A stretch of DNA of 64,000 nt from positions 20,849 to 84,848 of IMG/VR virus record IMGVR_UViG_3300035458_000037; one strand, 5' to 3'. The stretch comes from a virus. The position numbers were made by a program, and so were the translations under genes. Numbering within the stretch: position 1 is the stretch's first letter; the number at the start of each line of letters is the position of its first letter. Positions 22,695 to 40,665 of the stretch are shown here, piece by piece. The notes below the pieces were generated by a model. That model was given only the letters and a program-made list of their open reading frames with translations. It did not search any database and had not been told where the DNA came from.

Positions 22695-22697
22695 CCA

Positions 22698-23927: not shown

Positions 23928-23931
23928 CCAA

Positions 23932-25300: not shown

Positions 25301-25301
25301 T

Positions 25302-25526
25302 ATGTTTCTAAACAATTGCTATGCCGATAGTGATACCGGAATCATGAAAGTTTTCATGGCGTATAGTTCAGATATGCAATTATTCGCTATGGATGTAAAA
25401 GCGCTTTGCCATAATGATCCTACGCAAAACAATGGTATGAGTGTGATCTTTGAATTTTCTCCTGAAGATAGATTTGGAAATTTCATTGAATTTGATAGAT
25501 TGTTTAGACTTCAGTTTGGATGTTGA
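25302..25526 (+). CDS. Small hypothetical protein
   Basis: A 74-residue protein starting at ATG after AAGGAGTAAT. It is Phe- and Asp-rich; no family recognised. It lies in a run of small genes just before the portal. Confidence 0.45.
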   Translation: MFLNNCYADSDTGIMKVFMAYSSDMQLFAMDVKALCHNDPTQNNGMSVIFEFSPEDRFGNFIEFDRLFRLQFGC

Positions 25527-25527
25527 T

Positions 25528-25662
25528 ATGACCTACAGGATAAGCAAGTTTGCATTAATGATAATTGCTAATTATGAAATACGTCCTCAATTAGGGATAT
25601 CTTTAAAGCTTCTCCATGGAGATGAAACCTGGAGTGCTAGTAAGGTTGCGTATGAAAGATGA
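25528..25662 (+). CDS. Small hypothetical protein
   Basis: A 44-residue basic protein whose ATG lies one base after the previous stop. Overlaps the next start. No motif. Confidence 0.35.
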   Translation: MTYRISKFALMIIANYEIRPQLGISLKLLHGDETWSASKVAYER

Positions 25663-25825
25663 ACGAATCAAAGAATATATGATACAGATAGGTCATGAAA
25701 ATAGCATATCTTTATACTCAACATTGAAGATGTTAATTAATGAAGTTGAAATAGAGACTCGTAAAGATTGTATAAGAATTATTGAGCAGGGCGGAACTCA
25801 TAAAGATTTACTGTGGGGAAGGTAA
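25652..25825 (+). CDS. Small hypothetical protein
   Basis: A 57-residue charged helical protein ending directly against the portal ATG. An earlier in-frame ATG at 25622 is possible. No family recognised. Confidence 0.4.
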   Translation: MKDERIKEYMIQIGHENSISLYSTLKMLINEVEIETRKDCIRIIEQGGTHKDLLWGR

Positions 25826-27652
25826 ATGACATATTCATCCAGTAAGTCAGTAGCCAATGCGATAAGTGTCAAGAGTAATTTTGTCAATTATCCTATCCGC
25901 TTTTTTAACATGATGCATTTTCAGCGTCCCAATACGCTGAATGAAATATTTAAATGGTGCGGCATTCTTACTGAATCATCCGGTCTCTTCGACCGTATGA
26001 CCGACACCATGGCTCGTTATCCAGTCACTCCCGTTGCCACAACAGATGATATTGGAACTGATCAAAACTACTGGCAGAATTTTCTTAATGAAGAACTTTG
26101 TATTCAAAATGAATTAGTATCTAATGGTAAGGATTTCTATACATTTGGTAATTGTATCTGTAGCTTTGTTCCACCCTTTAGACGTTATCTGGTATGTTCA
26201 AAGTGTAATTCATATCTTTATCATTGTATTAATCATGATAACATGGATGATACAAAATTTGAGTGGATGTATAAAGGTTATAATTTTTACGGCAAGTGTA
26301 TGAATAAAGATTGCAAACATCACGGTATGATGGAAGTGAAAGATGAATACCTTACTGGAGATGATTTCGTAAAGAATATCAAAATTCATAGATGGCCAAT
26401 TCTTAATATCAAAATCAGAGATTTAGGTATTGCTGGTAAGAAGAGAATTTATTATAAGATAGAACGTAAATATTCAAAAGGCATTGAGAAAGGAGACAGG
26501 TTTGTTGTCGCCAATGTTCCATACACATTTATTCTTGCGTGTAAGAAAAATCAGCTTACTCCCATTATCGAATTACCTTCCGAACTTACATTTCATTACA
26601 ATCATGAAACTATTACGGAACCTGAATGGGAAGGGCTGAGTAAACCTTTCTTTTTCTCAGCATGGAAAGATCTCTTTATGAGCTTTGTGCTGCGCAAAGC
26701 TCAGGAGATGATTGCGGCTGATCACATGATCCCTAATAGGTTCCTGTTCCCGCAGACGGCCCCAGGCGGTCGTGATCCGCTTTCACAAATCGACGGCGGG
26801 AGCTGGGTCAACATCATCAGCACCCAGATCAAGCGCCAGCAGAATGACCCAAGCGAATTTGGTATCGTACCCTTCCCAATTGGTTACCAGGCGCTAGGTG
26901 GGCAGGGCAAAAACATGTCTCTGCGCGAAGAGATCGAGCTTCAGGATCGAAGAATCTTGACTCAGATGGGTATTCCACCAGAACTCATTTACGGCGGTAT
27001 GACATGGAGCGGTAGTAATATTTCACTCAGAATGCTTGAAAATCTATTCTTGTATTATATTCATAAACATAATGTTTTCTTAAGATCCTTCGTGAATTAT
27101 GCCGCAAGAATGTCTGGTAAGAAAGCGCCAGGAACCGTTAAATTAAAGCCCTTTAAAATGGCCGATGATATTCAACAGATTCAACTTCGATCTACCCTTG
27201 GTATTCAAGGCAGAATCAGCGAAACTACAGCGCTTGCTCATGTGGATGGAATTAATCTTGAAGCAGAAGCTGATCAAGCTGAGAAAGAAGCGACATTTGT
27301 TCAACGTATTACCGCTGCTCGTCAACTCACGGCAGCCAAAGTCAATCTTGAAGTCTCTAAGACAACCAATGAAGGTCAAGTTGATATTCAAACTGAGACT
27401 GCTATGCGACAAAATCAAGATAATACCGCAGCTCAAACTGCAATTACCGATGGATTTGTAGCCAATACTACCCAAGGATTGATTAATAAATTGAACGCCA
27501 TGCCTTATCAACAACGCCAGCTTGAATTGAAGAATCTTCAGCAGCAAGATCCGCAGAAGTTCAACGAAGTCACTACCGCCATGATGGGCGGTGCCAGTCA
27601 ACTTCCAGAAAAACGCGCTCCCCGGCGCGGCCCTGAAACAGCCCAGGTGTAA
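25826..27652 (+). CDS. Portal protein with zinc-finger-like insertion
   Basis: A 608-residue portal, the dodecameric ring through which DNA enters the head and to which the tail joins. The family's core segment R-I-L-T-Q-M-G-I-P-P-E-L-I-Y-G-G (about 373-388) followed by S-G-S-N-I-S-L-R-M-L-E is clear, and the C-terminal 150 residues are Gln/Ala-rich helices. Unusually, C124-x2-C127 and C158-x4-C163 with a following HH pair form a probable zinc knuckle. Immediately follows the previous stop. A GC-rich island covers the core (about 26690-26950). Confidence 0.85.
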   Translation: MTYSSSKSVANAISVKSNFVNYPIRFFNMMHFQRPNTLNEIFKWCGILTESSGLFDRMTDTMARYPVTPVATTDDIGTDQNYWQNFLNEELCIQNELVSNGKDFYTFGNCICSFVPPFRRYLVCSKCNSYLYHCINHDNMDDTKFEWMYKGYNFYGKCMNKDCKHHGMMEVKDEYLTGDDFVKNIKIHRWPILNIKIRDLGIAGKKRIYYKIERKYSKGIEKGDRFVVANVPYTFILACKKNQLTPIIELPSELTFHYNHETITEPEWEGLSKPFFFSAWKDLFMSFVLRKAQEMIAADHMIPNRFLFPQTAPGGRDPLSQIDGGSWVNIISTQIKRQQNDPSEFGIVPFPIGYQALGGQGKNMSLREEIELQDRRILTQMGIPPELIYGGMTWSGSNISLRMLENLFLYYIHKHNVFLRSFVNYAARMSGKKAPGTVKLKPFKMADDIQQIQLRSTLGIQGRISETTALAHVDGINLEAEADQAEKEATFVQRITAARQLTAAKVNLEVSKTTNEGQVDIQTETAMRQNQDNTAAQTAITDGFVANTTQGLINKLNAMPYQQRQLELKNLQQQDPQKFNEVTTAMMGGASQLPEKRAPRRGPETAQV

Positions 27653-27654
27653 CG

Positions 27655-28104
27655 ATGGAGAAACCGCCAGTTCAGAAGTCGCGTTCAGCACTTTTTAATT
27701 TGAGTCAGAAAGAAGAGTTAGAAAAATATATTAAAGTTTTAGATAAGATTGCAAATAATAATCATAAGTATATCATTTTAAATAATCAAATTCAAAATGA
27801 CAATTATGGTGATCCTTTTGTAATCATGCATTATATTGATATGATCGGAGAGGAAGAAAGGAGTAATAATAAAATTCATTATTCCGCAGAAATACTTAAT
27901 GTTCCTGGTGATCTAGATAGATTTGATACTCTAATGGAAAAGATATGGAGCAAAGAAATTATTCTAACTTTTCTAGAAGATTTTAAACATCAGGAAAAAG
28001 ATTTCTTTTACATGTATAAACTGATCTTCTATTACAAGACATCTCCCAAGACTATACTCAAAAAAGATACATTTCTTAACACAATGCCCGTCGCGTCCAA
28101 GTAG
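27655..28104 (+). CDS. Hypothetical head-tail region protein
   Basis: A 149-residue protein two bases after the portal stop; it has LDKIAN (about 24-29), close to the recurring hexapeptide. Lys-, Asp- and Tyr-rich, no family recognised. Confidence 0.45.
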   Translation: MEKPPVQKSRSALFNLSQKEELEKYIKVLDKIANNNHKYIILNNQIQNDNYGDPFVIMHYIDMIGEEERSNNKIHYSAEILNVPGDLDRFDTLMEKIWSKEIILTFLEDFKHQEKDFFYMYKLIFYYKTSPKTILKKDTFLNTMPVASK

Positions 28105-28112
28105 GAGAGCAA

Positions 28113-28586
28113 ATGAGTTTATCGGATCTTCGTTTTAATGCAGGGTGGTTTCCTTCAGAAAGGGATAGATTGCTTGAAAAATTTGCAGATAAAAACTCTT
28201 CAGATGATAAGATAGTTACCCCTGAATTTTTTATCGCAAAGATGACGTGCTATCAATTTGAAAGTGTAATACGTCCGGAGGATAACGCTCTTGTAATTCA
28301 CTTGAAACATTTGGCTCCAGCTCTTAGGAATAGGAAGTTCTTTGATTATGCTGCACAATTCATTCGTGATAGGATAGGTAAGTTCGCTACCATGGACGCA
28401 AGTTTTATTGGCGAAGTTGATAAGGTAAATAAATTGAATAGCCTTGATTTAATTTTCACTCAGTATTACCCGGCAAGAATGCATGACATGGAATTCATCA
28501 AAAAGCATACGGCAAAAATTGGATACGATCTTGATCAGACTATAATTCGTGAGCTTGGAGCCGCCGCTAGTGCAAATATACCTTGA
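28113..28586 (+). CDS. Putative neck/baseplate small protein
   Basis: A 157-residue protein starting with MSLSDL after AGGAGAGCAA and containing LLEKFAD (about 24-30). Mixed alpha/beta; no firm family. It lies between portal and sheath genes, so a head-completion or neck role is plausible. Confidence 0.45.
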   Translation: MSLSDLRFNAGWFPSERDRLLEKFADKNSSDDKIVTPEFFIAKMTCYQFESVIRPEDNALVIHLKHLAPALRNRKFFDYAAQFIRDRIGKFATMDASFIGEVDKVNKLNSLDLIFTQYYPARMHDMEFIKKHTAKIGYDLDQTIIRELGAAASANIP

Positions 28587-29397
28587 ATGTCGTGAGATTT
28601 CATATGAGTCAATTGTTCTTTATTGGACGGTTGATAAAGAAGCTCATGAACGAGTTACGGATTTTTTGTTTACGGTTGAAAAGTCGGAGTCACCCAATGG
28701 CCCGTGGTCACCGTTGCCGGGAACTCCCGTTAGCGCCTTTGGATATATAGATACGGATACTCAGCGTGGAATGATTGATATCCGAATTTATTATCGTGTT
28801 CGCGCTAACAATAAAACTGGTAAGGAATACTCCTCAAATACACAGTGCATATTTGAGGAGGAACGTAATTTCATTACCAATTACATCGCTGAATGCGAAG
28901 ATCGTTACATGCTTCAGCGATATAATGGTAATGAATTTTTGCATTTTTCTCGTAAAAAATTTGGCGATAGATGCCATCATTGTTATGATGAAGTGGAACG
29001 TAAATCAATTAAGCCAAAATGTCCATTCTGTTATGGAACTACTTATGAAGGCGGATTCTTTACTCCTACGCGAATTCTTATTAATGTAGATCCAAAAGCG
29101 AAAGTTGCAGATAGAAATGAGTATGGAGTATTAGAAAACTTTGCTCATTCTGGCTGGACATCTAATCGAGTTATTATCGAAGAACTCGATATGGTTGTAT
29201 CGTTAGATAAATCATCTATTAGATATCTTGTTAACCAAGTGATCCCTACTGGTATTCATGGATCTGTAACAAGACAGCAATTGAATCTAACGCAATTAAA
29301 AGTTGATAGTCCTTATCAATTACTATCTGTTGATGTAGAAGCCTATCCTATATATGAATTAAATGTTTTCAGAAGAGATTGGCAGATACACTCCTGA
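28570..29397 (+). CDS. Structural protein with FN3-like domain and zinc ribbon
   Basis: About 275 residues. Residues 1-95 follow a fibronectin type III-like pattern (L-Y-W-T-V start, central P-x-G-P-W-S, and Y-Y-R-V-R-A-N-N end), then CHHC and CPFC pairs (about 140 and 157) form a zinc ribbon, then a beta-rich C-terminal domain. A GTG start ten bases after GGAG is chosen; an earlier GTG at 28549 is possible. Place before the tail terminator-like and sheath genes suggests a neck protein. Confidence 0.5.
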   Translation: MQIYLECREISYESIVLYWTVDKEAHERVTDFLFTVEKSESPNGPWSPLPGTPVSAFGYIDTDTQRGMIDIRIYYRVRANNKTGKEYSSNTQCIFEEERNFITNYIAECEDRYMLQRYNGNEFLHFSRKKFGDRCHHCYDEVERKSIKPKCPFCYGTTYEGGFFTPTRILINVDPKAKVADRNEYGVLENFAHSGWTSNRVIIEELDMVVSLDKSSIRYLVNQVIPTGIHGSVTRQQLNLTQLKVDSPYQLLSVDVEAYPIYELNVFRRDWQIHS

Positions 29398-29406
29398 GAG
29401 TAAACT

Positions 29407-30048
29407 ATGATTTACAAAGATTTCGTTCAAAGTAAAACATTCAATGTTGGATATTATGGCGTTAGAGCCATTATTTTATATTTAGTAGAACGTTTTAGCA
29501 ATAATCAAGATCTGGAGTATAAAGTATATACTGATGAATTGAATAGAATAGATTCATACGGATCTTTGTTGATTACATCAAGGTATGATTGGGAAACAAA
29601 GTTCAGGGGCAAGCGTCCGGCTATTTTTGTGTCACGCGGAAATCTGTTGACCGGGGCCAATGGCACTGTGGCTCAATCCAAATTGTTCAGCGTCACCGAC
29701 AATGGAGAAACTACTTCCTATATGGATCTGGTTTCTTTCCCTATCGTGATAGAATGTCTAGCAGAGAGCGACATCGAAAGTGAAGCTCTGGGTTCTATGA
29801 TTGCTACTTTCATAGGATTAGATGTTAGACCTTTGAGAAGTTTAGGATTACAAATACAAGGTGGAATCACTCAATCACCACCAGTATTATTCGAAAAGGA
29901 TAACATTTCTTTTATCTCTTCCGTAATTATTCAAACTCAAATATCTAGACAATACAGAGCACGGATTATGGGCAGCGAAACTCTTGAGAACATCAGAACC
30001 CTCCTTAATCAAAAACTGCTTTCCGAAATAAATGAGGATACGGTATGA
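29407..30048 (+). CDS. Putative tail terminator/completion protein
   Basis: A 213-residue alpha/beta protein with the order helix, R-P-A-I-F-V-S-R-G strand, D-L-V-S-F-P-I-V-I-E-C strand, often seen in tail completion proteins that cap the tube and sheath. It overlaps the first sheath gene by four bases. Assignment is from pattern and position. Confidence 0.45.
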   Translation: MIYKDFVQSKTFNVGYYGVRAIILYLVERFSNNQDLEYKVYTDELNRIDSYGSLLITSRYDWETKFRGKRPAIFVSRGNLLTGANGTVAQSKLFSVTDNGETTSYMDLVSFPIVIECLAESDIESEALGSMIATFIGLDVRPLRSLGLQIQGGITQSPPVLFEKDNISFISSVIIQTQISRQYRARIMGSETLENIRTLLNQKLLSEINEDTV

Positions 30049-31016
30049 CATACAAGCTTCCTGCTCCGTCCGTTACCAAATTACTGGTTCAGCCTAGTCA
30101 AAATTTGGCAGACAGTCAGCTTCTTCCGTGTTTGGTTGGGCCTCTCAATCAGGTTGTAAAGTCAGCCCCGATCGCTCTTATTTATCCGGTATCCAATGCT
30201 ACAATAGCTTATCCTGGTATGAAACCTGGCGCTATTATTAGCACAAGTAGTATTGGAGTGGTTGTTAATAATGCTATAGTTCAGATTAATGCATCACCGA
30301 TAAGTGCAGGTGGAAATTTTGTTGCTGGCACTAATACAATTCATATTGCCAGTGCATTTACGAATGCATTAGCAGGTGATATCATTACATTGAGCGCAGC
30401 AGGTGGTGTGTATACTATTGCAACGGTTGTTGATAATGATCATGCTACTACCGTTGAAACGATTCATCATACAACTTCTGCTGAAACGTTTAATATTACA
30501 CGAGCAATTGCATCAGCTACCGCGAAACTGAATGGAGTGGTTTACAACACTACGTTTATGACCGTCGTATCTATGACTTACGGCACTAATGACTACGTAT
30601 TTGTAGATGGTGATGCGGTAATCAGTTATGTGGCAGCTCGTAAAGATCTTCTTGGATTTTATACAGTGGACAATCCGGATACTTTGGCTGCGGATATGGA
30701 TGTGGACATTTTGAATCCGTTGGGATTTGATTTGGGCATTGCAATGGCTGGAGCTGGCGCAGCAACACGATTGGCATATATCACTAGGGATGGCAGTCAA
30801 AATTCTTATATCGCAGCTCTTGCAGATTTGGCTACTCGGCGCGGTCCCTACATGATTTCCAGTGTCAATTTTGCAGACTCCACCATCCAGGGGTTCTTTG
30901 CTACGCATGCCGAGACAGTTTCGATGCCAAGTGTTAGCATGTTCAGAGCTGCTTTGTTGACCACAGACATTGTGAAACAGCTCACGCTGACCAGCGCCAC
31001 TTACACCAAGTCTTAA
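30045..31016 (+). CDS. Tail sheath, N-terminal half
   Basis: A 323-residue protein holding the first half of a contractile sheath: N-terminal strand region with L-L-P-C-L-V-G-P (about 26-33), an inserted beta domain (about 60-160), then the sheath core D-I-L-N-P-L-G-F-D-L-G-I-A-M-A-G-A-G, Y-I-A-A-L-A-D-L and T-H-A-E-T-V-S-M-P-S (about 222-300). It stops where the classic sheath would continue. The next gene supplies the rest. Start overlaps the previous gene (ATGA). Confidence 0.7.
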   Translation: MTYKLPAPSVTKLLVQPSQNLADSQLLPCLVGPLNQVVKSAPIALIYPVSNATIAYPGMKPGAIISTSSIGVVVNNAIVQINASPISAGGNFVAGTNTIHIASAFTNALAGDIITLSAAGGVYTIATVVDNDHATTVETIHHTTSAETFNITRAIASATAKLNGVVYNTTFMTVVSMTYGTNDYVFVDGDAVISYVAARKDLLGFYTVDNPDTLAADMDVDILNPLGFDLGIAMAGAGAATRLAYITRDGSQNSYIAALADLATRRGPYMISSVNFADSTIQGFFATHAETVSMPSVSMFRAALLTTDIVKQLTLTSATYTKS

Positions 31017-31030
31017 GATCTGGAGATCGC

Positions 31031-32002
31031 ATGTCTATTACAATTACCGTAGCTGGAAAAACACTCCTAACTTCAGGAGTGAGTATTGGGCATGAGATGG
31101 TAGTGACAGATGTTACTAATCCTACGTCTACGCCAGCCGGTGTATTACTGGCTGATGGAAGTCATAATCCGATCTTATATGAACAACTTCTTGTTACAGA
31201 AGTTGTAAGCGAAACAAGCTTAAAGTTTGATGCATATTCAAATGGCACTGCATTGGGTCTTACTGATGCAAATTTGAATCTGGCATCTACCGAACATTTC
31301 ACATTCAGTATTGTTCAGCATCTTAGCACTGATCAGCAAGTAGATCATCTCGTGGCCATCGCAAGCTCTTATGATTCTGAAAGAGTTTTGATGATCTGGC
31401 CTCCTGAGGCTGAATGGGATCAGAATGGAACAGTAGTCAATGGCTCGACTATGGCGGCGATCTGTTCTGCCGCAATGTCTGTTTATCCAGCACAGCAAGG
31501 TTTCACCAATCTGTCGTTCTCCGGCCCTTACAATCTGCATTACTCCAATACATACTTTACGCCTGCGCAACTTAATAGATTGAGTGCCGCAGGATTCTTT
31601 GTTTTGGTTCAAGATACTCCTGGTGCAGAAGTCTATTGCAGACATCAGAAAACAACTTCTCAGTCTGCTGAGATTGCTAGACAGGAGTTCAGTATCACCA
31701 AGGGATCTGATAAGGTAGGTCTTGACTTATACAATACGGTTAAGCCATATATTGGTAAATACAACATCACTCAGGATCTACTGACAGCTGTGAATGAAGT
31801 AATTGGTAATTACTTATTCAAAGCAAAAAGCACTAAAGCTCCATTCTGTGGTAGCCTAATTATTGATTATAGCAATCTATCGCTTCGTGCAAATCTCGAT
31901 GGTGAGAATACAGATTTACCAAAAGATACAATCGAAATATCAGTAACGATTGAAATGGGTTACCCAGCTAATTACATCGACATTCTGTTATACGTGCAAT
32001 AG
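31031..32002 (+). CDS. Tail sheath, C-terminal half
   Basis: A 323-residue protein with its own Shine-Dalgarno (CTGGAGA) and start. After an N-terminal beta domain (1-95) it carries the second half of the sheath: S-E-R-V-L-M-I-W-P-P-E, A-A-I-C-S-A-A-M-S, L-N-R-L-S-A-A-G-F-F-V-L, then the lumen-facing C-terminal region with Y-I-G-K-Y-N-I-T and final strands. The two halves together are 646 residues, like a one-piece sheath. They lie in different reading frames and each is independently translated. Confidence 0.7.
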   Translation: MSITITVAGKTLLTSGVSIGHEMVVTDVTNPTSTPAGVLLADGSHNPILYEQLLVTEVVSETSLKFDAYSNGTALGLTDANLNLASTEHFTFSIVQHLSTDQQVDHLVAIASSYDSERVLMIWPPEAEWDQNGTVVNGSTMAAICSAAMSVYPAQQGFTNLSFSGPYNLHYSNTYFTPAQLNRLSAAGFFVLVQDTPGAEVYCRHQKTTSQSAEIARQEFSITKGSDKVGLDLYNTVKPYIGKYNITQDLLTAVNEVIGNYLFKAKSTKAPFCGSLIIDYSNLSLRANLDGENTDLPKDTIEISVTIEMGYPANYIDILLYVQ

Positions 32003-32010
32003 GAGATATC

Positions 32011-32739
32011 ATGGCCGCAAATGGCGTTTCAATAAAAGACCTATTGGGCGTTGATAGTGGGGCGAATGACTGGCAGTGGAGAGAGAACTTCGTCCAGTTG
32101 GACGAGAACATGGCCACCCCTGGATTATTCATTGCCGCAGAGTCCACTTTGGTTGCTTTTGGTCCTGCAACAGCCACCTCAGCTTTCGACGTGGTGAAGG
32201 TGGGTTTATGCCCCAATATCGCAATCTCTCAGCAGATTCCGCAGCAACGACTTCCCGAGATCGGATCGATCCGGGTACATATCCTGAACGGGGTTCCTAT
32301 TGGCGGTGGATCGATGTCGCGCTTGGTCTACAACGGCCCTAGCCTTATGCGCTACGCTTACGGCAACCTGTACGATGACAATGGCGCTCCAACTCCCTTG
32401 GCACTCGCAGGAATGGCTACTGGAGTAGGCCCCGCTCAGGACTTTACAACAAATGCCTGGAAAAATCTGGTGAAGTCACCGGATAAAGTGATGCAAGGGC
32501 ATGTGTTCACGGATCTATGGATTTCCTGCTGGGACTCCAGATTGAAAGCGCCATTTGGCCTGTGCATGTATTTCCAGGATATTGCTGGTAATGCAGTAGG
32601 TGGTGTTTATGCTGAAGGCACCAAGATCAATTCTCATAACTTGACGCAATCTGCCGGTCAGTTGATTATGATGGAAGGTATCTCATTTGCGTTTGATAGG
32701 CTTGTTCCTATCCGTGGCGTTGGAAGGAGTCAATTATGA
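32011..32739 (+). CDS. Tail tube protein
   Basis: A 242-residue beta-rich protein directly after the sheath, with I-G-S-I-R-V-H-I-L-N-G-V-P-I-G-G-G-S and L-V-Y-N-G-P-S-L-M-R-Y-A-Y-G (about 89-123), typical of tube proteins that polymerise as the inner tail tube. Start after AGGAGATATC. Its first 400 bases are GC-rich. The role is supported mainly by position and pattern. Confidence 0.6.
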   Translation: MAANGVSIKDLLGVDSGANDWQWRENFVQLDENMATPGLFIAAESTLVAFGPATATSAFDVVKVGLCPNIAISQQIPQQRLPEIGSIRVHILNGVPIGGGSMSRLVYNGPSLMRYAYGNLYDDNGAPTPLALAGMATGVGPAQDFTTNAWKNLVKSPDKVMQGHVFTDLWISCWDSRLKAPFGLCMYFQDIAGNAVGGVYAEGTKINSHNLTQSAGQLIMMEGISFAFDRLVPIRGVGRSQL

Positions 32740-33083
32740 GTATTGTTAAGATTGCAGCAGCTAAGTGGCGAAAGTTAGCAAAAAGTCTTGTTAGTAAAAG
32801 TGGATATCTTAATGAAGGAGAAAAGAATTTTGCAAACAAAATGACTTCTCATATGCATAGTGATATAGGTAAAATACAAAATAGATTGGGAGTAGCTAAA
32901 CATGATTTGTCTATAAACAATCCACATCACAATCATTTTTTTAACGCTAAGGATTATAAGCATCCTTCTAATTTTAAAAAATATAATGATGATCAAAGCC
33001 TAACATTAAAAGAAGCTTTGAAACAAAAAGCTGAAGAAGCTCCAAGGTCAACATGGTTACCTGCTCCAAAGTTTAATTTGTAA
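32736..33083 (+). CDS. Small protein with MSIVKIAAA N-terminus
   Basis: A 115-residue basic, His/Asn/Lys-rich protein that starts MSIVKIAAA, the only + strand member of the N-terminal KLA-tag set. ATGA overlap with the tube gene. It ends the tail operon before a terminator. Function unknown; probable virion-linked. Confidence 0.55.
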   Translation: MSIVKIAAAKWRKLAKSLVSKSGYLNEGEKNFANKMTSHMHSDIGKIQNRLGVAKHDLSINNPHHNHFFNAKDYKHPSNFKKYNDDQSLTLKEALKQKAEEAPRSTWLPAPKFNL

Positions 33084-33105
33084 TAATCAAAGTTGTAACT
33101 CAATC

Positions 33106-33130
33106 AAAACCTCCTTTTGGAGGTTTTTTT
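33106..33130 (+). terminator. Intrinsic terminator
   Basis: AAAACCTCC-TTTT-GGAGGTTTT with a run of seven T after the stem G residues. It ends the tail operon. Confidence 0.9.
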
Positions 33131-33131
33131 A

Positions 33132-33161
33132 TTGCAATAATTTATAAATATATGTTATAAT
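33132..33161 (+). promoter_or_regulatory. Phage promoter, TGCAA/TATAAT type
   Basis: TTGCAA, 18 bases, TATAAT followed by ATATTTGG, with TGT before the -10. It sits right after the terminator and drives the accessory block that includes the transporters. Confidence 0.8.
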
Positions 33162-33204
33162 ATATTTGGTAATAATTAAATTATCTAAACTCATAGGAGG
33201 AAGT

Positions 33205-33219
33205 ATGAATACTTTTTAA
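33205..33219 (+). other. Leader mini-ORF, four codons
   Basis: ATG AAT ACT TTT TAA (MNTF) four bases after AGGAGG, in the leader. Strong Shine-Dalgarno but trivially short product. Confidence 0.3.
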
Positions 33220-33264
33220 TAACTATTCTAGGTCTTAACACTCTACTTATGAAATGAAAGGAGG

Positions 33265-33282
33265 ATGAGATACGCAAAGTAA
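33265..33282 (+). other. Leader mini-ORF, five codons, coupled to next gene
   Basis: ATG AGA TAC GCA AAG TAA (MRYAK) directly behind AAAGGAGG, ending in TAATG so that its stop overlaps the start of the next gene. It may load ribosomes for the downstream gene. Confidence 0.35.
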
Positions 33283-33491
33283 TGATTAAATCACTAGGTT
33301 CCTTAATGTGGGATCTTGCAATAATATTAAGTGAAACTGAAATATATATTTATAAAGTATCACAAGTAGATATAAAGCTAGCGATGGCAACGAAACGAGA
33401 AAATGAAGATTGGGTAGAATGCTGGTTAAGATATTTAGAGGCTCCAGATGAACGAAGAGTGGATAGACAACGAGTATGCTTACACCGGTAA
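33282..33491 (+). CDS. Small hypothetical protein
   Basis: A 69-residue protein whose ATG overlaps the preceding mini-ORF stop. It has no strong Shine-Dalgarno of its own, so it depends on coupling. No family recognised; first real gene of the accessory block. Confidence 0.45.
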   Translation: MIKSLGSLMWDLAIILSETEIYIYKVSQVDIKLAMATKRENEDWVECWLRYLEAPDERRVDRQRVCLHR

Positions 33492-33654
33492 ACGTAATGA
33501 TGGTGCAAGAGTAGGGGGATTCTGGCTTAATGGAAAGTTAGAATGGTGGGCCTATCCTTCAAATTATTCAATGAAATTGAATAATGCGCTAGGCCCCTTT
33601 TCAACAATGAACGCAGCGAAGGATGCGTTAGATGGATGCGTGAGGATAAAATGA
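33448..33654 (+). CDS. Small hypothetical protein
   Basis: A 68-residue protein with W/Y-rich centre (W-L-N-G-K-L-E-W-W-A-Y-P), overlapping genes on both sides. No family recognised. Confidence 0.45.
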   Translation: MNEEWIDNEYAYTGKRNDGARVGGFWLNGKLEWWAYPSNYSMKLNNALGPFSTMNAAKDALDGCVRIK

Positions 33655-33965
33655 CGGATGCATTAAAGCGTTTATTGAAATTAGATTTATCTAATTTTCA
33701 AGAAGGTGATAGAATAGTATTTTGTCCAGATTGTGAATTTCAAGATAAAGTTAATAGACGTTCACTAGCTAATTGTAAATGTCATTGTCATCTGGAAACA
33801 ATTAGAGTCACAGATATACTTATTGGTTATATAAAATCAACTAAAGTTAAAGATATTTATGAACAGGCTCTTAGAAATATAGTATTGAATGATAATAGAG
33901 ATTTCCAAAAAGCAGTAGCTGAAGATGCATTAATACTTGGAAGCGAGGTGACTTATGATGTTTGA
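33651..33965 (+). CDS. Zinc-binding small protein, paralogue of next gene
   Basis: A 104-residue protein with CPDC, then CKCHC (about residues 23-50), likely a zinc site, followed by a helical part with D-I-Y-E-Q-A-L-R-N-I. It shares this design with the next gene, so the two are tandem paralogues. ATGA overlap with the previous gene. Confidence 0.55.
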   Translation: MTDALKRLLKLDLSNFQEGDRIVFCPDCEFQDKVNRRSLANCKCHCHLETIRVTDILIGYIKSTKVKDIYEQALRNIVLNDNRDFQKAVAEDALILGSEVTYDV

Positions 33966-34287
33966 TTTAAATCTTATTGGTTACGCAGACAATGATATAG
34001 TAATTGTTTGTTCAAATTGTAAAATGTTGCCAAAAGATTCTGGCATAACTCCAAAATGTCAATGTGTAACTAAAGCACAATTTGACAAAACTAGAGACTT
34101 ATTTTATATGTATGAACAAGCATTGAAAGACATTCTTTATACCATGCAATATTTAAAAAGAGAAGTAGAATCAAGTGGCGATAAATTCAATGGTAGTGAA
34201 GCTGTTATATTAAATAATAATCTAAATTTTATAAAAGGAATAGCTCAAGATACGTTAAAAATTGTAGAATCATACAATGTTGTATAG
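33955..34287 (+). CDS. Zinc-binding small protein, paralogue of previous gene
   Basis: A 110-residue protein with CSNC then KCQC (about 19-40) and Y-E-Q-A-L-K-D-I plus a closing I-A-Q-D-T-L-K-I helix matching A-E-D-A-L-I-L in the previous gene. Function unknown. Confidence 0.55.
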   Translation: MMFDLNLIGYADNDIVIVCSNCKMLPKDSGITPKCQCVTKAQFDKTRDLFYMYEQALKDILYTMQYLKREVESSGDKFNGSEAVILNNNLNFIKGIAQDTLKIVESYNVV

Positions 34288-34459
34288 AGTCGCCCTTCTA
34301 CAAGATTTTGATAGAACTGCACACTTTTTAGATTTAGAAGGTCCAGAAAAAATTACGTTTAATGATATCGCTAAATGGGAAAGGCATGTTAATGATCGAT
34401 GCAGGCACATATCTTTTACGATAATGTCATGGAGTCCGATACATCAGGAGAAAATATGA
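34277..34459 (+). CDS. Small hypothetical protein
   Basis: A 60-residue protein overlapping the previous gene by 11 bases. No motif recognised. Confidence 0.4.
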   Translation: MLYRVALLQDFDRTAHFLDLEGPEKITFNDIAKWERHVNDRCRHISFTIMSWSPIHQEKI

Positions 34460-34644
34460 TACATGATATCAAGAAATATTCTACATTCAATAATGGAGAA
34501 GAAGATCTTGTAGCTGTTCCAGAAAAAGTATATCTTGATTTAAGAAAGAGTGAAGATATTCTACAAGCATTACAAGCATACGGAGTTGATAATTGGGATG
34601 GATACTCCCAAGCGATGTCAGAAATAGAAGATGAGGAGGAGTAA
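34456..34644 (+). CDS. Small acidic hypothetical protein
   Basis: A 62-residue protein ending in a run of acidic residues; ATGA overlap with the previous gene, Shine-Dalgarno CAGGAG. Function unknown. Confidence 0.45.
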   Translation: MIHDIKKYSTFNNGEEDLVAVPEKVYLDLRKSEDILQALQAYGVDNWDGYSQAMSEIEDEEE

Positions 34645-35136
34645 TTGATAGTAGAAATAGCGCCAGACCTTAACATCACGATTGATGATGTAGATAAACG
34701 TATTGTAGAAAAACGTAAATGGTATTTACATTCAAATAAGAGAAGTATCATAGCCTGCTTTTGGGATGGTGATAGAAAAAGAACATTTACGTTAGGAAGA
34801 TATATTTTATCTGAGTATGGACATATCTTTGATGAAAATGAACTGGTATGCTATAAGGATCATGATTTTTTGAATAATAAAAAAAGTAATCTTGTTGTTA
34901 GAACTAAGTCCGAGAATAATAAGAACAGGAGACCCAAGATGATTAAAGGTAGTCTAACTAGAAGATCATTGCCTTATGGTGTATATCGTAATAAAAAAGG
35001 TAAAAAGTATAGTTCTGCTATTAGAATAAAAGGAAAATTGATTTGGTTAGGATCTTTTGCATCTAAAAATAACGCAGAAAGAGCAACCAGTGAGGCAGTA
35101 GAACGATTTGGATACCAAAGGAAATCAAATGGATGA
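34645..35136 (+). CDS. HNH/AP2-type homing endonuclease-like protein
   Basis: A 163-residue protein starting at TTG after GAGGAGGAG. The N-terminal half holds an HNH-like region with L-G-R-Y-I-L then D-H-D-F-L-N-N-K-K-S-N-L and E-N-N-K-N-R (about 50-95); the C-terminal half is an AP2 DNA-binding domain (Y-G-V-Y-R-N, W-L-G-S-F, then A-x-x-A, about 110-155). Such proteins are phage free-standing mobile endonucleases. The first catalytic His position reads C-Y-K-D-H, so activity is uncertain. It lies between small genes and the transporter pair. Confidence 0.75.
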   Translation: MIVEIAPDLNITIDDVDKRIVEKRKWYLHSNKRSIIACFWDGDRKRTFTLGRYILSEYGHIFDENELVCYKDHDFLNNKKSNLVVRTKSENNKNRRPKMIKGSLTRRSLPYGVYRNKKGKKYSSAIRIKGKLIWLGSFASKNNAERATSEAVERFGYQRKSNG

Positions 35137-35383
35137 TTTGTTATGTAAATGCACTCAGCAAAGAGGACTCGAAAGATTTGCTACATCCAATAAATTTGAT
35201 CTAAATGGAGGTAGGTATACATCATTCCAGGTTTTCAAGTGTTTATCATGCAATAAGGCTACATTCTTCCCTACTGAAAATGGAGAACTTGCGTTGAAGG
35301 AAGGGACAGAACGTTGTTTGCGTGAACTAAAAGAATGCATAGAAATGAATGCCTATAAGGAATCGTCCTATATAGGTGTCTGA
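35129..35383 (+). CDS. Small Cys-pair protein
   Basis: An 84-residue protein after AAAGGAAATCAA with CKC near the start and CLSC (about 38-41), a possible zinc site, and a helical Glu/Lys-rich C-terminus. It overlaps the endonuclease gene by eight bases. Confidence 0.5.
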   Translation: MDDLLCKCTQQRGLERFATSNKFDLNGGRYTSFQVFKCLSCNKATFFPTENGELALKEGTERCLRELKECIEMNAYKESSYIGV

Positions 35384-35410
35384 TCAAAACGAATTCACTA
35401 TGGAGGAATT

Positions 35411-36691
35411 GTGAATCAAACTCAAAGACATCCATTAACGTGGGTGCCATCTCTATTCACTATTGAGGGAATGGGAGGCATCATACTTGGACTTGTAATT
35501 CCAACTATTTATAAGAGTTTGGGATTATCAAATACAAAGATAAGCTTTTGGCTTTCCTTAGCGGGAATGCTAATGCTTTGTCGGCCTTTGATTGTGCCAT
35601 TCATCGAAATGACATGTTCAAAGAAGAATGTGGTTATCTTTTCGCAAGTATTTATGTCTTTGAGTTTTATTGCAGTTGGTTTTTCGCTAAAGACATCTAG
35701 TTTCTTTTTGGTATCATTATGCGTTGTGGCAGTTCTCACTTTACTTGTTCAAATTCATGACCCCTGCGCAGACGGAACCTTCATTGAGGTTCTGGATGTA
35801 GCAGCACAAACCAAGTATGTGGGGTGGATGTCAGCCGGTTATCAGATTGGCAAAGTCATTTGTCAAGGCGGCATTGTTCTGGGTGCTGGTTATCTTATCG
35901 AGAATATGAAAATGGAAACCTCATCCGCTTGGATGGCTGCCATGATCATATCAGGTTTTATACTGCTAATCGTTGCTGCGTATCATGGAGTGGTAATACC
36001 TCCCACTCCTAGAAATGAAAATGCTAGGGTTGAGACTACAAAAGAATATTTCTCTAAGTTTTATGAAATCACAAAAGAATACTTCATGAAACCTGGTATT
36101 TGGTGGTGTATTCTTTTCTTTTTCTTCTATCGATTGGCTGAAGAACAAGCGATGAATATCTTTGGGTTGTTCTTAATTGATTCACCTGCAAAAGGTGGAT
36201 TGGGAATGACTATCAAAGAACTGGGTATGACTTATGGATTCTTCCCGCCAATAGCTCTTTTCATTGGAGCTTTAGTAGCTGGTCCTGTAATGGAGAAGAT
36301 GGGAGGGTTTAGAAAAGCAATTCCTCTTTTTGCGGTAATTTATAATATACCACTTCTTCTTTATGGAATTGTTGCTTATACACTTCCAAATAATCCATAC
36401 CTAATTACATTTATTTGTTGCTGCGAATATTTTGGATATGGATTTGGATGGAATGGACTATTAGTGTGCAACCAACAGTATGCCGCTCCGGGAAGATTCA
36501 AAACTGCGCATCTGGCAATTGGGACTGCCATTGTCCATGGCGTCTCCAAATTGCCAGTTGGGTTATCTGGCTATATGTCTGACCTACTTGGATACAAACA
36601 CTTCTTTGTTCATTACACATTAGCAATGATGATTCCTTCGATTATCATTGCCTTTGTAGTTTCAAAGAAATTGCGAGAAATAGAACGATAA
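35411..36691 (+). CDS. AmpG-like MFS permease (muropeptide-type transporter)
   Basis: A 426-residue integral membrane protein with about 12 hydrophobic helices in two six-helix halves around a charged central loop (about 195-225), the MFS plan. The layout, including the loop with Q-I-H-D-P-C-A-D-G in the first half and Y-F-G-Y-G-F-G in the second, is closest to AmpG-type permeases, which import cell-wall muropeptides across the inner membrane of Gram-negative bacteria. The start is GTG after GGAGG. It is 13 bases from a peptide transporter. Substrate is inferred; another MFS subfamily is possible. Confidence 0.7.
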   Translation: MNQTQRHPLTWVPSLFTIEGMGGIILGLVIPTIYKSLGLSNTKISFWLSLAGMLMLCRPLIVPFIEMTCSKKNVVIFSQVFMSLSFIAVGFSLKTSSFFLVSLCVVAVLTLLVQIHDPCADGTFIEVLDVAAQTKYVGWMSAGYQIGKVICQGGIVLGAGYLIENMKMETSSAWMAAMIISGFILLIVAAYHGVVIPPTPRNENARVETTKEYFSKFYEITKEYFMKPGIWWCILFFFFYRLAEEQAMNIFGLFLIDSPAKGGLGMTIKELGMTYGFFPPIALFIGALVAGPVMEKMGGFRKAIPLFAVIYNIPLLLYGIVAYTLPNNPYLITFICCCEYFGYGFGWNGLLVCNQQYAAPGRFKTAHLAIGTAIVHGVSKLPVGLSGYMSDLLGYKHFFVHYTLAMMIPSIIIAFVVSKKLREIER

Positions 36692-36704
36692 CCAAGGAGA
36701 GTTT

Positions 36705-38273
36705 ATGAATCCAGTCTTTTATCTTCCGCTGATAACAATGTCCATTCTTGGTGTTTGGACTGCTTTGATCATTAAGATCAAACGTAAGCAACATCCTGAT
36801 GCATTGTTTAAGTTATTTATGGTTGAAATTTGGGAGCGATTTTCGTATTATGGCATGAGAGCAATGTTGATTCTATTCCTTTCTGCTGCTGCTACAGGTG
36901 GACTCCGTGGCGGCCTGGGAATGAATAGATCAGAAGCAATTGGTATTTACGCAGCATTTGTATCTTTGGTTTATATTACACCTCTTTTAGGTGGGAAACT
37001 GTCAGATAAAATTCTAGGTATAAAGACAGCAGTTATACTTGGATCATCTATGATGGCTATGGGTCAATTCTGTCTGGCTTTTAGTGGCGGGAATAGAATC
37101 TTGGTCTATCTTGGGTTAGCAATATTGACGGTTGGTAATGGATTTTTTAAACCAAACATATCTGCGCTTATAGGTAAATTATATAAGCCGGGAGACGCTA
37201 GACGTGATGGAGCGTTTACTATCTTTTACATGGGTATTAATATAGGAGCGTGGGTAGCACCATTACTTTGTGGTGCTCTTCGTGATTCTATTGGATGGAG
37301 TCCGGCTTTTGCTACCGCTGGTCTTGGCATGATTCTAGGTTTGATAATCTTCATTTGGACGATGCGAACAGAAAAAGAAATTGCGAACTTCGCAGCGGCA
37401 CCTACACCAGTTACTATTATAAAAGAAACGAATACCGTTACTCGCACCAAAGCATTTATCATTATTATATGCGCAATTCCAATTACTTGTTTGTTAATTA
37501 TTAAAAACGGCTTGATGGATTGGTTATTAGGTGGAACTATTATTAGTATGATCTCTTATATGCTTTATCTTTCTATAAAAATGGAAAAAATAGCACGCGA
37601 AAGAGTTGTTGCTTTAATTTCTCTTTTTGGTTTTTGCGTTGTATTTTGGTCTCTTTTTGAATTAGCTGGATCAGCTATTAACATTTTTACAGAGAATAAT
37701 GTAGAGAAATCTTTATTCGGAGTTAAACTAACTACGGAAAGCTTTCAAAGTTTCAATGCGGCATTTGTGGTTGCCCTTGCTCCATTGATGGATAAACTGT
37801 GGTCATGGATGGCCAAAATAGGAAAGATGGCTCAAGCTCCAATCCAGTTTGGGTCAGCTTTAATATTAGTTGGTCTTGGATTTGTTTTACTCAAATTTGG
37901 AGTTCCATTTGCATCCAAATTGGGTATGATGCCAGCAATGTTTTTGGCTGGCATGTATCTTCTTCATACTGTTGGTGAGTTATCGATTTCACCAATTGGT
38001 TTATCACTGGTCACGAAACTTGCGCCGGCATCTATGGTTTCGTTCTTTATGGGATTCTGGTTTCTTGCTACAGCTTGTGCTGGTCAGGTTGGCAAATGGA
38101 TCTCACGCGCTGCGATTCCTGATGTCGTTGGAGCAACACCACTTCAAACGTTACATACATCAGTGCATACGTTTGTTATATGTGGAGTAATATCTATTGG
38201 ATGTGGTTTGATTTTGTATACAATGAATCCAATTATTAAGCGTTGGATGCATCAAGATCAAATCCAGAATTAA
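36705..38273 (+). CDS. POT/PTR-family proton-coupled oligopeptide transporter
   Basis: A 522-residue membrane protein that probably imports di- and tripeptides with protons. The helix-1 motif E-x2-E-R-F-S-Y-Y-G-M (E41-x2-E44-R45-F46) needed for proton coupling is intact. The PTR2 signatures G-N-G-F-F-K-P-N-I-S (about 146-155) and D-G-A-F-T-I-F-Y-M-G-I-N-I-G-A (about 168-182) are clear, and 12-14 helices are visible. The length is normal for DtpA-like proteins, so the gene looks functional. Start after AAGGAGAG. It is followed by a terminator. Confidence 0.9.
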   Translation: MNPVFYLPLITMSILGVWTALIIKIKRKQHPDALFKLFMVEIWERFSYYGMRAMLILFLSAAATGGLRGGLGMNRSEAIGIYAAFVSLVYITPLLGGKLSDKILGIKTAVILGSSMMAMGQFCLAFSGGNRILVYLGLAILTVGNGFFKPNISALIGKLYKPGDARRDGAFTIFYMGINIGAWVAPLLCGALRDSIGWSPAFATAGLGMILGLIIFIWTMRTEKEIANFAAAPTPVTIIKETNTVTRTKAFIIIICAIPITCLLIIKNGLMDWLLGGTIISMISYMLYLSIKMEKIARERVVALISLFGFCVVFWSLFELAGSAINIFTENNVEKSLFGVKLTTESFQSFNAAFVVALAPLMDKLWSWMAKIGKMAQAPIQFGSALILVGLGFVLLKFGVPFASKLGMMPAMFLAGMYLLHTVGELSISPIGLSLVTKLAPASMVSFFMGFWFLATACAGQVGKWISRAAIPDVVGATPLQTLHTSVHTFVICGVISIGCGLILYTMNPIIKRWMHQDQIQN

Positions 38274-38279
38274 ATTAAT

Positions 38280-38304
38280 AGCCCCAGCAATGGGGCTTTC
38301 TTTT
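38280..38304. terminator. Intrinsic terminator between converging operons
   Basis: AGCCCCA-GCAA-TGGGGCT with TTCTTTT behind it on the + strand, and AT-rich sequence on the other side. It separates the transporter gene from the - strand head module. Confidence 0.85.
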
Positions 38305-38309
38305 AGATA

Positions 38310-39158
38310 TTACAGTTTAAACGCAATCATCTGACCCGCAAATCTTGTATCCGGTGTTAATGGAATATACAAAAGAACATAATTCTTACTTGCGAATTGA
38401 ATTCCACATCGATTCCTTAAGTCAATGCCAGTATTTGGATCGGTTATACGGACATCAACGTCTGTGTTTAAATTGTGGTGAAAAGTTATTTCGTAATGGC
38501 CTGTGATAGGGTTGACCACCCAATCAGCCACTAGGAAATTGAGAGGGTCGCTCTTATGGCCAGGATGAACACCTTCGTAGGGGCGTCCGTCAGCCATTTC
38601 TGGAACCATAGAGGGGGCCGCGCTTAAACTGCCCGTGCCGAAGTCATTGAACTGGGCTCCAGCGTATAAGCCACTATAATCCCACATACGATACTCGGGG
38701 CTCTTGATAATACCGAATGTCTTAGCCACGTTATATGCATACTTGAATTCGCGTTTCTTCTCTTCCACACGCCTGGACCATAATCCGGCAAGTCCAATAT
38801 AATTTGGGCCTCTTCCCCATGGATTAGTAGAAACGCCATTGTCATTGAATGGCATATCATTTCTGTAATACAATACACCGGCAGATTCCAAAGCAAACAT
38901 TGAAGCAGCGATTATCAACCAATCGAATGCTGGAAATTGTTCAATGGTTATAGCATTAAGCAATGGGGGTGTGCTATTCCAATCACTCAATGCCATTTCA
39001 ATGTATAAACCTATTTCTTGATCGGTAGTTTCTTCTCTTCGCCATAGAGCATTGAGCTTTGGTTGATCTCGTAAAAACATGCGCACTAAATTAGTTAAAA
39101 CCCTTTTGTTCATGGGCATATTTGGTTTGACTTGACCCAAATTGCATTCCTGATCCAT
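38310..39158 (-). CDS. Virion structural protein, possible head-tail adaptor
   Basis: About 282 residues. The N-terminal half is helical with aromatic residues (L-V-R-M-F-L-R-D, D-W-L-I-I-A-A-S-M-F-A-L-E-S-A) and the C-terminal half beta-rich. It is the last gene of the head operon, after the capsid gene. A connector or adaptor role is guessed from place and helix pattern; no family is confirmed. The ATG six bases after GGAG is chosen. Confidence 0.45.
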   Translation of the reverse strand: MDQECNLGQVKPNMPMNKRVLTNLVRMFLRDQPKLNALWRREETTDQEIGLYIEMALSDWNSTPPLLNAITIEQFPAFDWLIIAASMFALESAGVLYYRNDMPFNDNGVSTNPWGRGPNYIGLAGLWSRRVEEKKREFKYAYNVAKTFGIIKSPEYRMWDYSGLYAGAQFNDFGTGSLSAAPSMVPEMADGRPYEGVHPGHKSDPLNFLVADWVVNPITGHYEITFHHNLNTDVDVRITDPNTGIDLRNRCGIQFASKNYVLLYIPLTPDTRFAGQMIAFKL

Positions 39159-39210
39159 GAGAAGCTCCAATCACTTTCTGAATTTTACCGCGTTCCCAGG
39201 TATAAACGCA

Positions 39211-39236
39211 GAAAAGGGCCACGCAAGCGCGGCCCT
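39211..39236 (-). terminator. Intrinsic terminator (- strand)
   Basis: On the - strand AGGGCC-G-CGC and GCG-T-GGCCCT form a stem with a two-base loop followed by TTTTCT. It lies between the gene at 39257 and the last gene of the operon, so it may partly terminate head transcripts. Confidence 0.65.
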
Positions 39237-39256
39237 CTCCTGCGTACCAGCACCCT

Positions 39257-39718
39257 TTAAGCGGACTCTGGGGTTTGTGCCGGGGCTGGAGCTGGGCTCG
39301 TGGGAGCAGCAGTCTTGGCAGCCGTCTTTTGTGGAGTAGGGGCTGGGACAGGCTTGACGGCAGGAGCCACAACTGGAGCTGGCTCCTGGGGCAGATAATT
39401 CGTCGGAACCCCATCAATTACAAGGGGTTCCGACTTCGCAAAGTCAATTGTCGGTGCAGGAACTTGAATGGGCTCGCCATTCTTATCCACGGGAGGATTC
39501 AAAGACAAGTAACTTTCGTTGAAAAGTTCCAGGGAGGGTTTGAACTTATATGCATCTGCTTCGTCTTTTGTATTAAACACTTTGACGAGGCCACGGGCTT
39601 CCATCTCTTTGTAGAGTTCTGGATAATCAGTTCGTCCAACTTTCCCTTCCGGCAAAACAAAATCAGCGGAAGTGATGGTTCCGAAAAGTGATTTTACATA
39701 CGACACGGTAACTCCCAT
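39257..39718 (-). CDS. Hypothetical head protein with Ala/Pro-rich tail
   Basis: A 153-residue protein. Residues 1-65 form a small mixed domain; the C-terminal half is Ala/Pro/Thr/Lys-rich low complexity. It follows the major capsid gene, so it may be a capsid accessory or decoration protein. The ribosome site is weak; a TTG two codons upstream is an alternative. Confidence 0.5.
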   Translation of the reverse strand: MGVTVSYVKSLFGTITSADFVLPEGKVGRTDYPELYKEMEARGLVKVFNTKDEADAYKFKPSLELFNESYLSLNPPVDKNGEPIQVPAPTIDFAKSEPLVIDGVPTNYLPQEPAPVVAPAVKPVPAPTPQKTAAKTAAPTSPAPAPAQTPESA

Positions 39719-39735
39719 TTTCAACTAATTATTGA

Positions 39736-40665
39736 TTAGGTCAAACTGGCGATGCCAGTGATCTTGGAAACAGAGGAAACGTTGCCGACTTCGATACCCT
39801 GATTGGTCCAGGAATACCACTCCAGCATATTACCCTTGCGATCCATTTCCTGTTGGACATCGCGCAACATAAAGTTGCTGCCCAAGAATTCAGGAGCCGC
39901 CACGCAATAGATATAATCATCAGGCCACACACTGGTAATGGAACTATTCACAGCGTTAATGGAAGTGATGACTTCGTAGCCCAGGAATGTCTTCTCAGGA
40001 GCCACGCCATTGAACGCAATGCGATCAACGGAGTTGTAGCCAATCTTATCGGGTTCAAGCTTTGCCAGATTGAGCCAGGTGCTCTCAGTCATAATCAAAC
40101 GAGCAGCTCGACGCCTGCGGCCCAGGACGGCCCGGACACCAGCGATAACCGCATCTTTGAACACACCTTTGACCGTACCAGCACCAGCCGGAATCACGTT
40201 GGTAGAGGTCTGCGCGGCGGCAGCAGCATCCAAACGCAGTTTGAACATGCCGTCCACCTGTTCCTGGAGATCGAAAACGAAGTTGTTATTAACAACATCG
40301 ATCAAAGGAAAACGCATAGTCATCAACTCTTCCTGAGTCTTCTTATAATGCTCAGTTTCGAGTTTGGCAAACCAAACTTCATACTTACGGCCTTCAACAA
40401 ACTGCGCAGAACCACGCCCACGGAAACCAAGTGTGAAAGCCTTCGAATCAGGTTCCAACCAAACGCGCTTCAGGGGGAAGTCGTTCTGAGTATTCGTATC
40501 AATCTGGGCTTCGGTAAGAACAATTGGTGCAATACAACGATTTGCTACGCAAGTTTCACGGATACGATCTCGAAGATAATCTTCGGTCAATCCCGCGACT
40601 TTTTCCATTCCGTCGCTGGAACCAGTGAACACATCCCATAGCTGGGAAGCAAGAATTTCTGACAT
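39736..40665 (-). CDS. Major capsid protein
   Basis: A 309-residue protein with the layout of an HK97-fold major capsid protein: short N-terminal arm, an extended region with R-V-W-L-E-P-D and G-R-G-S-A-Q-F, a long helix region F-D-L-Q-E-Q-V-D-G-M-F-K-L-R-L-D (about 130-150), an R-R-R-R-A-A segment, and a beta-rich C-terminus. MEKVAG at residues 20-25 matches the recurring hexapeptide and could mark a processing site. Start after AAGGAGATTAT. Place between decoration-like and accessory genes supports the call. Confidence 0.75.
   Translation of the reverse strand: MSEILASQLWDVFTGSSDGMEKVAGLTEDYLRDRIRETCVANRCIAPIVLTEAQIDTNTQNDFPLKRVWLEPDSKAFTLGFRGRGSAQFVEGRKYEVWFAKLETEHYKKTQEELMTMRFPLIDVVNNNFVFDLQEQVDGMFKLRLDAAAAAQTSTNVIPAGAGTVKGVFKDAVIAGVRAVLGRRRRAARLIMTESTWLNLAKLEPDKIGYNSVDRIAFNGVAPEKTFLGYEVITSINAVNSSITSVWPDDYIYCVAAPEFLGSNFMLRDVQQEMDRKGNMLEWYSWTNQGIEVGNVSSVSKITGIASLT

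What the first reader, a model, noticed from the sequence alone, without database searches (positions are those of the whole stretch)
35411..38273. Phage-encoded pair of nutrient-type transporters: AmpG-like permease and POT peptide transporter
Two full-length, intact integral membrane transporters stand side by side in one operon of a phage genome. The second has the complete proton-coupling motif ExxERF and both PTR2 signatures; the first looks like an AmpG-class muropeptide permease. Known phage auxiliary genes rarely include secondary peptide transporters. Together they would let an infected cell import peptides or recycle cell-wall peptides during phage production. They have the local AT-rich composition, so they are not an obviously recent bacterial insert.
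Basis: partly seen in the sequence, partly recalled or inferred. Interest (0 to 1): 0.85.

Follow-up and report, generated by a model that had tools for sequence, protein, structure and literature searches.

The report
Phage-carried sugar-like and peptide importers
A large environmental phage, and a relative of it from a second metagenome, each carry two intact membrane importers side by side: one for short peptides and one related to importers of two-sugar units. Both genes are kept under strong selection, so these phages probably help infected bacteria take up food, something rarely seen in phages.

Summary
Two intact, co-directional membrane transporters lie 13 bp apart at 35411-36691 and 36705-38273 in a real phage genome. 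The window is collinear with a 157 kb relative that lacks the pair, and an independent contig (L002) carries both genes at the same site, 83-86% identical but in swapped order. The host-contamination and misjoin refutations therefore fail. Selection is purifying (MFS dN/dS 0.08; POT pN/pS 0.14).

The POT identification is firm: TIGR00924 at 354 bits (cut-off 130), and the ExxER, Lys, Glu and Glu residues are all present. The 'AmpG muropeptide permease' label is only partly right. Fold search ranks AmpG first, but NCBIfam AmpG models do not reach their cut-offs. Sequence trees place the phage protein in a clade whose cellular members sit beside GH94 N,N'-diacetylchitobiose phosphorylase or GH130 Man-GlcNAc phosphorylase, not with the NamZ-linked muropeptide clade or E. 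coli AmpG. It has also lost about 37% of that clade's conserved positions, so its substrate may have shifted.

Best reading: a phage nutrient-uptake cassette (di/tripeptide symporter plus GlcNAc-disaccharide-type permease). Transport, expression and host are not shown. It is a new variant of a known kind (phage auxiliary transporters).

The parts
35411..36691 (+). MFS permease, 426 aa; AmpG-like fold; sister to disaccharide-phosphorylase-linked permeases
   Evidence: Pfam MFS_1; AlphaFold pLDDT 89, all-helical MFS; Foldseek top hit AmpG 8zgz TM 0.78; trees
36705..38273 (+). POT/PTR2 proton-coupled oligopeptide transporter, 522 aa, with an extra N-terminal hydrophobic segment (residues 5-23)
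   Evidence: TIGR00924 353.7 bits; PF00854; PDB GkPOT 4ikv 1e-73 with E41/E44/R45, K149, E319, E425 aligned to E32/E35/R36, K136, E310, E413
38280..38297 (.). hairpin terminator (could serve either strand at the convergent junction); the hairpin is identical after the pair in L002 although the gene order is swapped
33106..33127 (+). terminator-like hairpin closing the upstream tail-module operon
   Evidence: consensus match only
33132..33161 (+). candidate promoter TTGCAA-18-TATAAT at the start of the cargo block
   Evidence: no excess over shuffles, so weak
34645..35136 (+). HNH endonuclease-like ORF upstream of the pair, also upstream in L002
   Evidence: phrog_99 1e-15; 48% homologue in L002
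35108..35383 (+). small ORF of unknown function between HNH and MFS
33636..34644 (+). three small ORFs of unknown function in the cargo block (33636-33965, 33955-34287, 34399-34644)
32011..32739 (+). phage gene on the left side of the cargo block (69-80% identical homologues in close relatives)
38310..39170 (-). phage structural-module gene on the right side of the cargo block (43-70% identical homologues in close relatives)
39736..40665 (-). major capsid protein
   Evidence: 92% in L002; homologous to the annotated major capsid protein of phage Arash
47604..49184 (-). terminase large subunit
   Evidence: phrog_675 4e-52

Best explanation
The pair is a phage auxiliary nutrient-uptake cassette. 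It was acquired once from bacteria by an ancestor of these phages and placed in a variable slot between two convergent phage modules. The POT gene makes a proton-coupled importer of di- and tripeptides in the host inner membrane. The MFS gene makes a second importer derived from permeases that bring in beta-1,4 GlcNAc-type disaccharides (chitobiose, Man-GlcNAc). Together they would give the infected cell peptides (nitrogen, amino acids) and sugar during phage production. Shown: intact genes, families, phage context, shared ancestry of the two phage copies, purifying selection, POT coupling residues. Inferred: transport activity, direction, substrate of the MFS protein, expression during infection, benefit to the phage.
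For: POT: TIGR00924 far above cut-off, full-length match to solved peptide transporters with ExxER, K149, E319 and E425 retained; ExxER is the canonical proton/peptide motif (PMC9309889). MFS: within a clade with 99-100% branch support whose members neighbour GH94 or GH130; that GH94 scores 1203 bits to chitobiose phosphorylase 1v7v, the activity is listed for Ignavibacterium album (PMC8950772), and the GH130 matches UhgbMP. Phage ownership: synteny and empty site in relatives, second contig with both genes, dN/dS, codon usage.
Against: No expression or transport data. The MFS protein keeps only 62-64% of columns conserved in its cellular clade (cellular members 86-100%), so the substrate may no longer be a disaccharide. 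No phosphorylase or glycosidase gene lies beside it in the phage. The host is unknown (one search found no spacer match), so whether the host can use such substrates is untested. The phage branch is long, so exact placement is uncertain.
Confidence: 0.6

Rival explanations
1. Cell-wall salvage: the MFS protein is a true AmpG-type muropeptide importer and, with the POT, recovers peptidoglycan sugars and peptides during phage production or from neighbours lysed earlier.
For: The nearest solved fold is AmpG, with AmpG-GlcNAc-anhMurNAc complexes also among the hits; L002 copy matches an AmpG model at 5e-16; the wider family includes NamZ-linked members.
Against: Score is far below curated AmpG cut-offs (58 against 656 bits); trees put it in the GH94/GH130-linked clade and not with NamZ-linked rows or E. 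coli AmpG.
Confidence: 0.2
2. The pair does not feed the cell. Over-expressed proton symporters would alter membrane energetics, or occupy or alter the envelope, to block superinfection or time lysis.
For: Both are membrane proteins in an accessory slot that elsewhere holds an endonuclease-like ORF; the MFS protein has lost many conserved positions.
Against: All POT coupling and binding residues tested are kept and both genes are under strong purifying selection over their length; a non-transport role would not need those residues.
Confidence: 0.15
3. Host chromosome fragment or assembly join.
For: POT genes in some other phage records are host flanks, so this error does happen.
Against: Independent contig L002 has both genes beside the same capsid genes and HNH gene; relative G001 continues on both sides; codon usage matches the phage.
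Confidence: 0.02

Closest known systems
Bacterial POT/PTR2 peptide symporters (TIGR00924; GkPOT 4ikv, DtpA)
   Same: Family score above cut-off, full-length alignment, ExxER and the key Lys/Glu residues
   Different: Phage-encoded; extra N-terminal hydrophobic segment; only 25-40% identical over full length to cellular members found
MFS permeases beside GH94 chitobiose phosphorylase (Ignavibacteria, KSB1) and GH130 Man-GlcNAc phosphorylase (Bacteroidota)
   Same: Same clade in two tree models; 31-38% identity
   Different: No phosphorylase partner in the phage; about 37% of clade-conserved positions changed, including W55, W61, Q140, N145, K249 (phage numbering; the residue named is the cellular one)
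AmpG muropeptide permease
   Same: Nearest solved fold (8zgz, TM 0.78); distant sequence relation
   Different: Far below AmpG model cut-offs; outside the NamZ-linked clade; 16% identity to the AmpG structure
Other phage auxiliary transporters (sodium/glucose, NMN, Mg2+; listed in PMC6163359)
   Same: Phage-encoded secondary transporters of bacterial origin
   Different: That survey's list of transporter types names no POT, and a text search of it finds no 'peptide' or 'major facilitator'; here two importers are paired in one cassette

Membership tests
POT/PTR2 (TIGR00924, PF00854) | Curated family score | tested here: met
   353.7 bits against cut-off 130.2; PF00854 176.5 against 27
POT/PTR2 (TIGR00924, PF00854) | ExxER(F) motif and conserved Lys/Glu residues of coupling and binding | tested here: met
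   E41xxE44R45F46, K149, E319, E425 aligned to GkPOT E32/E35/R36, K136, E310, E413
POT/PTR2 (TIGR00924, PF00854) | H+-coupled di/tripeptide uptake | not testable with these tools
   needs a transport assay
AmpG muropeptide permease (TIGR00901, NF008867, NF008238) | Curated family score | tested here: not met
   window protein: no match listed at E<=10; L002 copy 58.5 bits against 656; E. coli AmpG control 980/660/497 bits
AmpG muropeptide permease (TIGR00901, NF008867, NF008238) | MFS fold nearest AmpG | tested here: met
   Foldseek rank 1, 8zgz, E 1e-10, TM 0.78
AmpG muropeptide permease (TIGR00901, NF008867, NF008238) | Muropeptide transport | not testable with these tools
   needs an assay
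Disaccharide-phosphorylase-linked MFS clade | Phylogenetic placement in the clade | tested here: met
   SH-aLRT 100 (PMSF) and 99 (LG+G4) for the clade; position within it unsure, long branch
Disaccharide-phosphorylase-linked MFS clade | Adjacent GH94 or GH130 gene | tested here: not met
   no such gene beside the pair (neighbouring ORFs)
Disaccharide-phosphorylase-linked MFS clade | Clade-conserved residues | tested here: inconclusive
   88 of 142 kept in both phage copies; cellular members keep 86-100%
Phage auxiliary gene | Located in a phage genome and maintained | tested here: met
   synteny, empty site, second phage, dN/dS

The most novel reading that the evidence does not exclude
A phage lineage captured a peptide symporter and a disaccharide-type permease once, has kept them as a pair through a gene-order swap, and has remodelled the second into a phage-specific importer with a new substrate, giving infected cells a dedicated peptide-plus-sugar feeding system.
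Probability: 0.4. Interest if true: 0.7.

Novelty: new variant of a known kind. Interest (0 to 1): 0.55.

Why it matters
Most documented phage metabolic genes are enzymes or single transporters. A maintained pair of secondary importers for peptides and probably GlcNAc disaccharides would mean that some phages change what the infected cell eats. That gives a testable case of phage-driven uptake of organic nitrogen and carbon in the environment. It also flags a likely mis-annotation: AmpG-fold permeases beside disaccharide phosphorylases need not be muropeptide permeases.

Tried and rejected
Host contamination or misjoin: rejected through L002 and G001. Other phage or IMG/VR POT hits as true relatives: those whose annotation or flanks I examined (Acinetobacter Ab105-3phi, MD-2021a, L179-L181) are host genes flanking prophages, beside Xaa-Pro aminopeptidase and an integrase or other chromosomal genes; the rest are unannotated records or lie near contig ends. 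MFS relatives in the phage collection are mainly human-fecal contigs with Bacteroidota-type operons (for example NamZ neighbours), 27-31% identical. Near DNA match in phages: none. Host by CRISPR spacer search of about 400 genomes of the phylum of L011 with window 20001-40000: hits were mostly POT homology, no convincing spacer. TerL scan of viral contigs with the single protein found nothing. PDB sequence search for the MFS protein found nothing. Pfam search of the 500 aa ORF at the same slot in relatives gave only a sub-threshold Mom match. Paper searches for phage-encoded POT gave nothing relevant. The POT tree does not name a donor lineage.

Full report
Observation. Two complete ORFs, 35411-36691 (GTG, SD GGAGGA) and 36705-38273 (ATG, SD AAGGAG), run in the same direction 13 bp apart. 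The first matches only the general MFS_1 model. The second matches PTR2/POT and passes the curated oligopeptide:H+ symporter model TIGR00924 by a wide margin. Aligned to the solved peptide transporter GkPOT it keeps E41, E44, R45, K149, E319 and E425, the canonical coupling and binding residues (ExxER role: PMC9309889). It has an additional hydrophobic stretch at residues 5-23.

Is it phage DNA? Yes. The record is an 84,848 bp virus contig. Around the pair lie terminase, head maturation protease, capsid, DnaE-type polymerase, helicases and nucleases. A capsid search found 18 further IMG/VR records of the wider family besides L002 (several are near-copies of one another). Of these, the 157,395 bp contig G001 matches the window gene by gene along its length. 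In G001 the junction between homologues of 38310-39170 and 32011-32739 is 338 bp; here it is 5.6 kb and contains an HNH-like gene, small ORFs and the transporters. In other relatives the junction holds a ~500 aa ORF, about which Pfam says little. No MFS match exists in 12 records of these relatives.

Independent copy. L002 (IMGVR_UViG_3300037090_000294, 9,566 bp) has both transporters next to the same capsid and structural genes, with the same HNH family upstream, but in the order POT then MFS. Protein identity is 83% (POT) and 86% (MFS). Synonymous sites are near saturation (pS 0.75 and 0.61) while pN is 0.11 and 0.09, giving pN/pS of 0.14 for POT and dN/dS of 0.08 for MFS, similar to the capsid gene (0.06). 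An 18 bp hairpin terminator behind the pair is identical in both phages although the preceding gene differs. Both phage copies form one clade in each tree. The simplest history (inference) is one acquisition of both genes followed by a swap of order. Codon usage of the pair correlates 0.95 with the phage's own + strand genes, so acquisition was probably not recent.

What the MFS protein is. Against genomes, the best matches are 34-38% identical, first in Ignavibacteria, then Bacteroidota and KSB1. Their neighbours are informative. In Ignavibacteria and KSB1 the gene sits directly before a GH94 enzyme that is a chitobiose phosphorylase by sequence (1203 bits to 1v7v for the L014 copy); in L011 a GH18 chitinase-family protein follows. 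A GH94 of Ignavibacterium album is listed as a chitobiose phosphorylase (PMC8950772). In Bacteroidota the permease sits beside a GH130 enzyme related to UhgbMP and N-glycan glycosidases. Only more distant members sit beside the muramidase NamZ. Trees under two models put the phage pair inside the GH94/GH130-linked clade (100 and 99), and under LG+G4 nearest to the GH94-linked group (95 down to 75 on successive branches). The predicted fold (pLDDT 89) is nearest to AmpG in the PDB. So 'AmpG-like' is right as a fold and superfamily statement, but the substrate suggested by kin is a GlcNAc-type disaccharide rather than a muropeptide. A caution: both phage copies together keep only 88 of 142 clade-conserved positions; cellular members keep 86-100% in a leave-one-out test, the phage ones 62-64% each. 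The substrate may have moved.

How it likely works. Both proteins would sit in the host inner membrane and use the proton gradient, POT for di- and tripeptides, the MFS permease for a small carbohydrate, raising the supply of amino acids and carbon during phage production. The POT half rests on family membership and intact motifs; the MFS substrate, direction, coupling, expression and fitness effect are inference.

Rarity. In 2.9 million IMG/VR contigs, pattern-based scans found only L002 for the MFS protein and five further POT loci, of which three are Acinetobacter host flanks and two lie at contig ends. The scans use exact peptide patterns, so distant relatives can be missed. The two GenBank phage POT hits with annotation that I opened are host genes beside prophages. 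A 2018 survey of viral transporters lists phage sodium/glucose, NMN, Mg2+ and calcium transporters; its listed types include no peptide or MFS transporter (PMC6163359).

Limits. Host unknown; the spacer search of about 400 genomes gave only gene homology and short chance-level hits. The window record is probably a fragment of a larger genome (inference from G001). Long phage branches make the fine placement of both proteins unsure.

Noticed in passing
L002:2971-5852 vs window 35411-38273: The two transporter genes are in opposite order in the two phages while the downstream terminator hairpin is identical; mechanism of the swap unknown.
   Followed up: partly
L102:7246-8757, L103:2696-4207, L104:12269-13390, L106:4279-5757: In related phages the same slot carries a ~500 aa ORF (sub-threshold Pfam Mom match in L106; cysteine-rich N-terminal half), suggesting a cargo hot spot next to a convergent terminator; in L105 (12310-12520) only a remnant with similar sequence appears to be left.
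   Followed up: partly
L158:11326-18163 (G001): The 157 kb relative carries 13 tRNA genes; none was found in the window or in the first 20 kb of the window's record.
   Followed up: no
L003:11976-14051 (G000 1-20 kb): Phage-encoded ORF with a lipoprotein-like signal, apparently papain-like, PKD-like and glycosidase-like by eye; not tested.
   Followed up: no
L010, L011, L013-L017, L020 and similar cellular loci: Permeases that resemble AmpG stand beside chitobiose or Man-GlcNAc phosphorylases; AmpG annotation of this clade is doubtful.
   Followed up: yes
GenBank KT588073, CAKLQF020000018: Peptide permeases in these phage records are host chromosomal flanks of prophages.
   Followed up: yes
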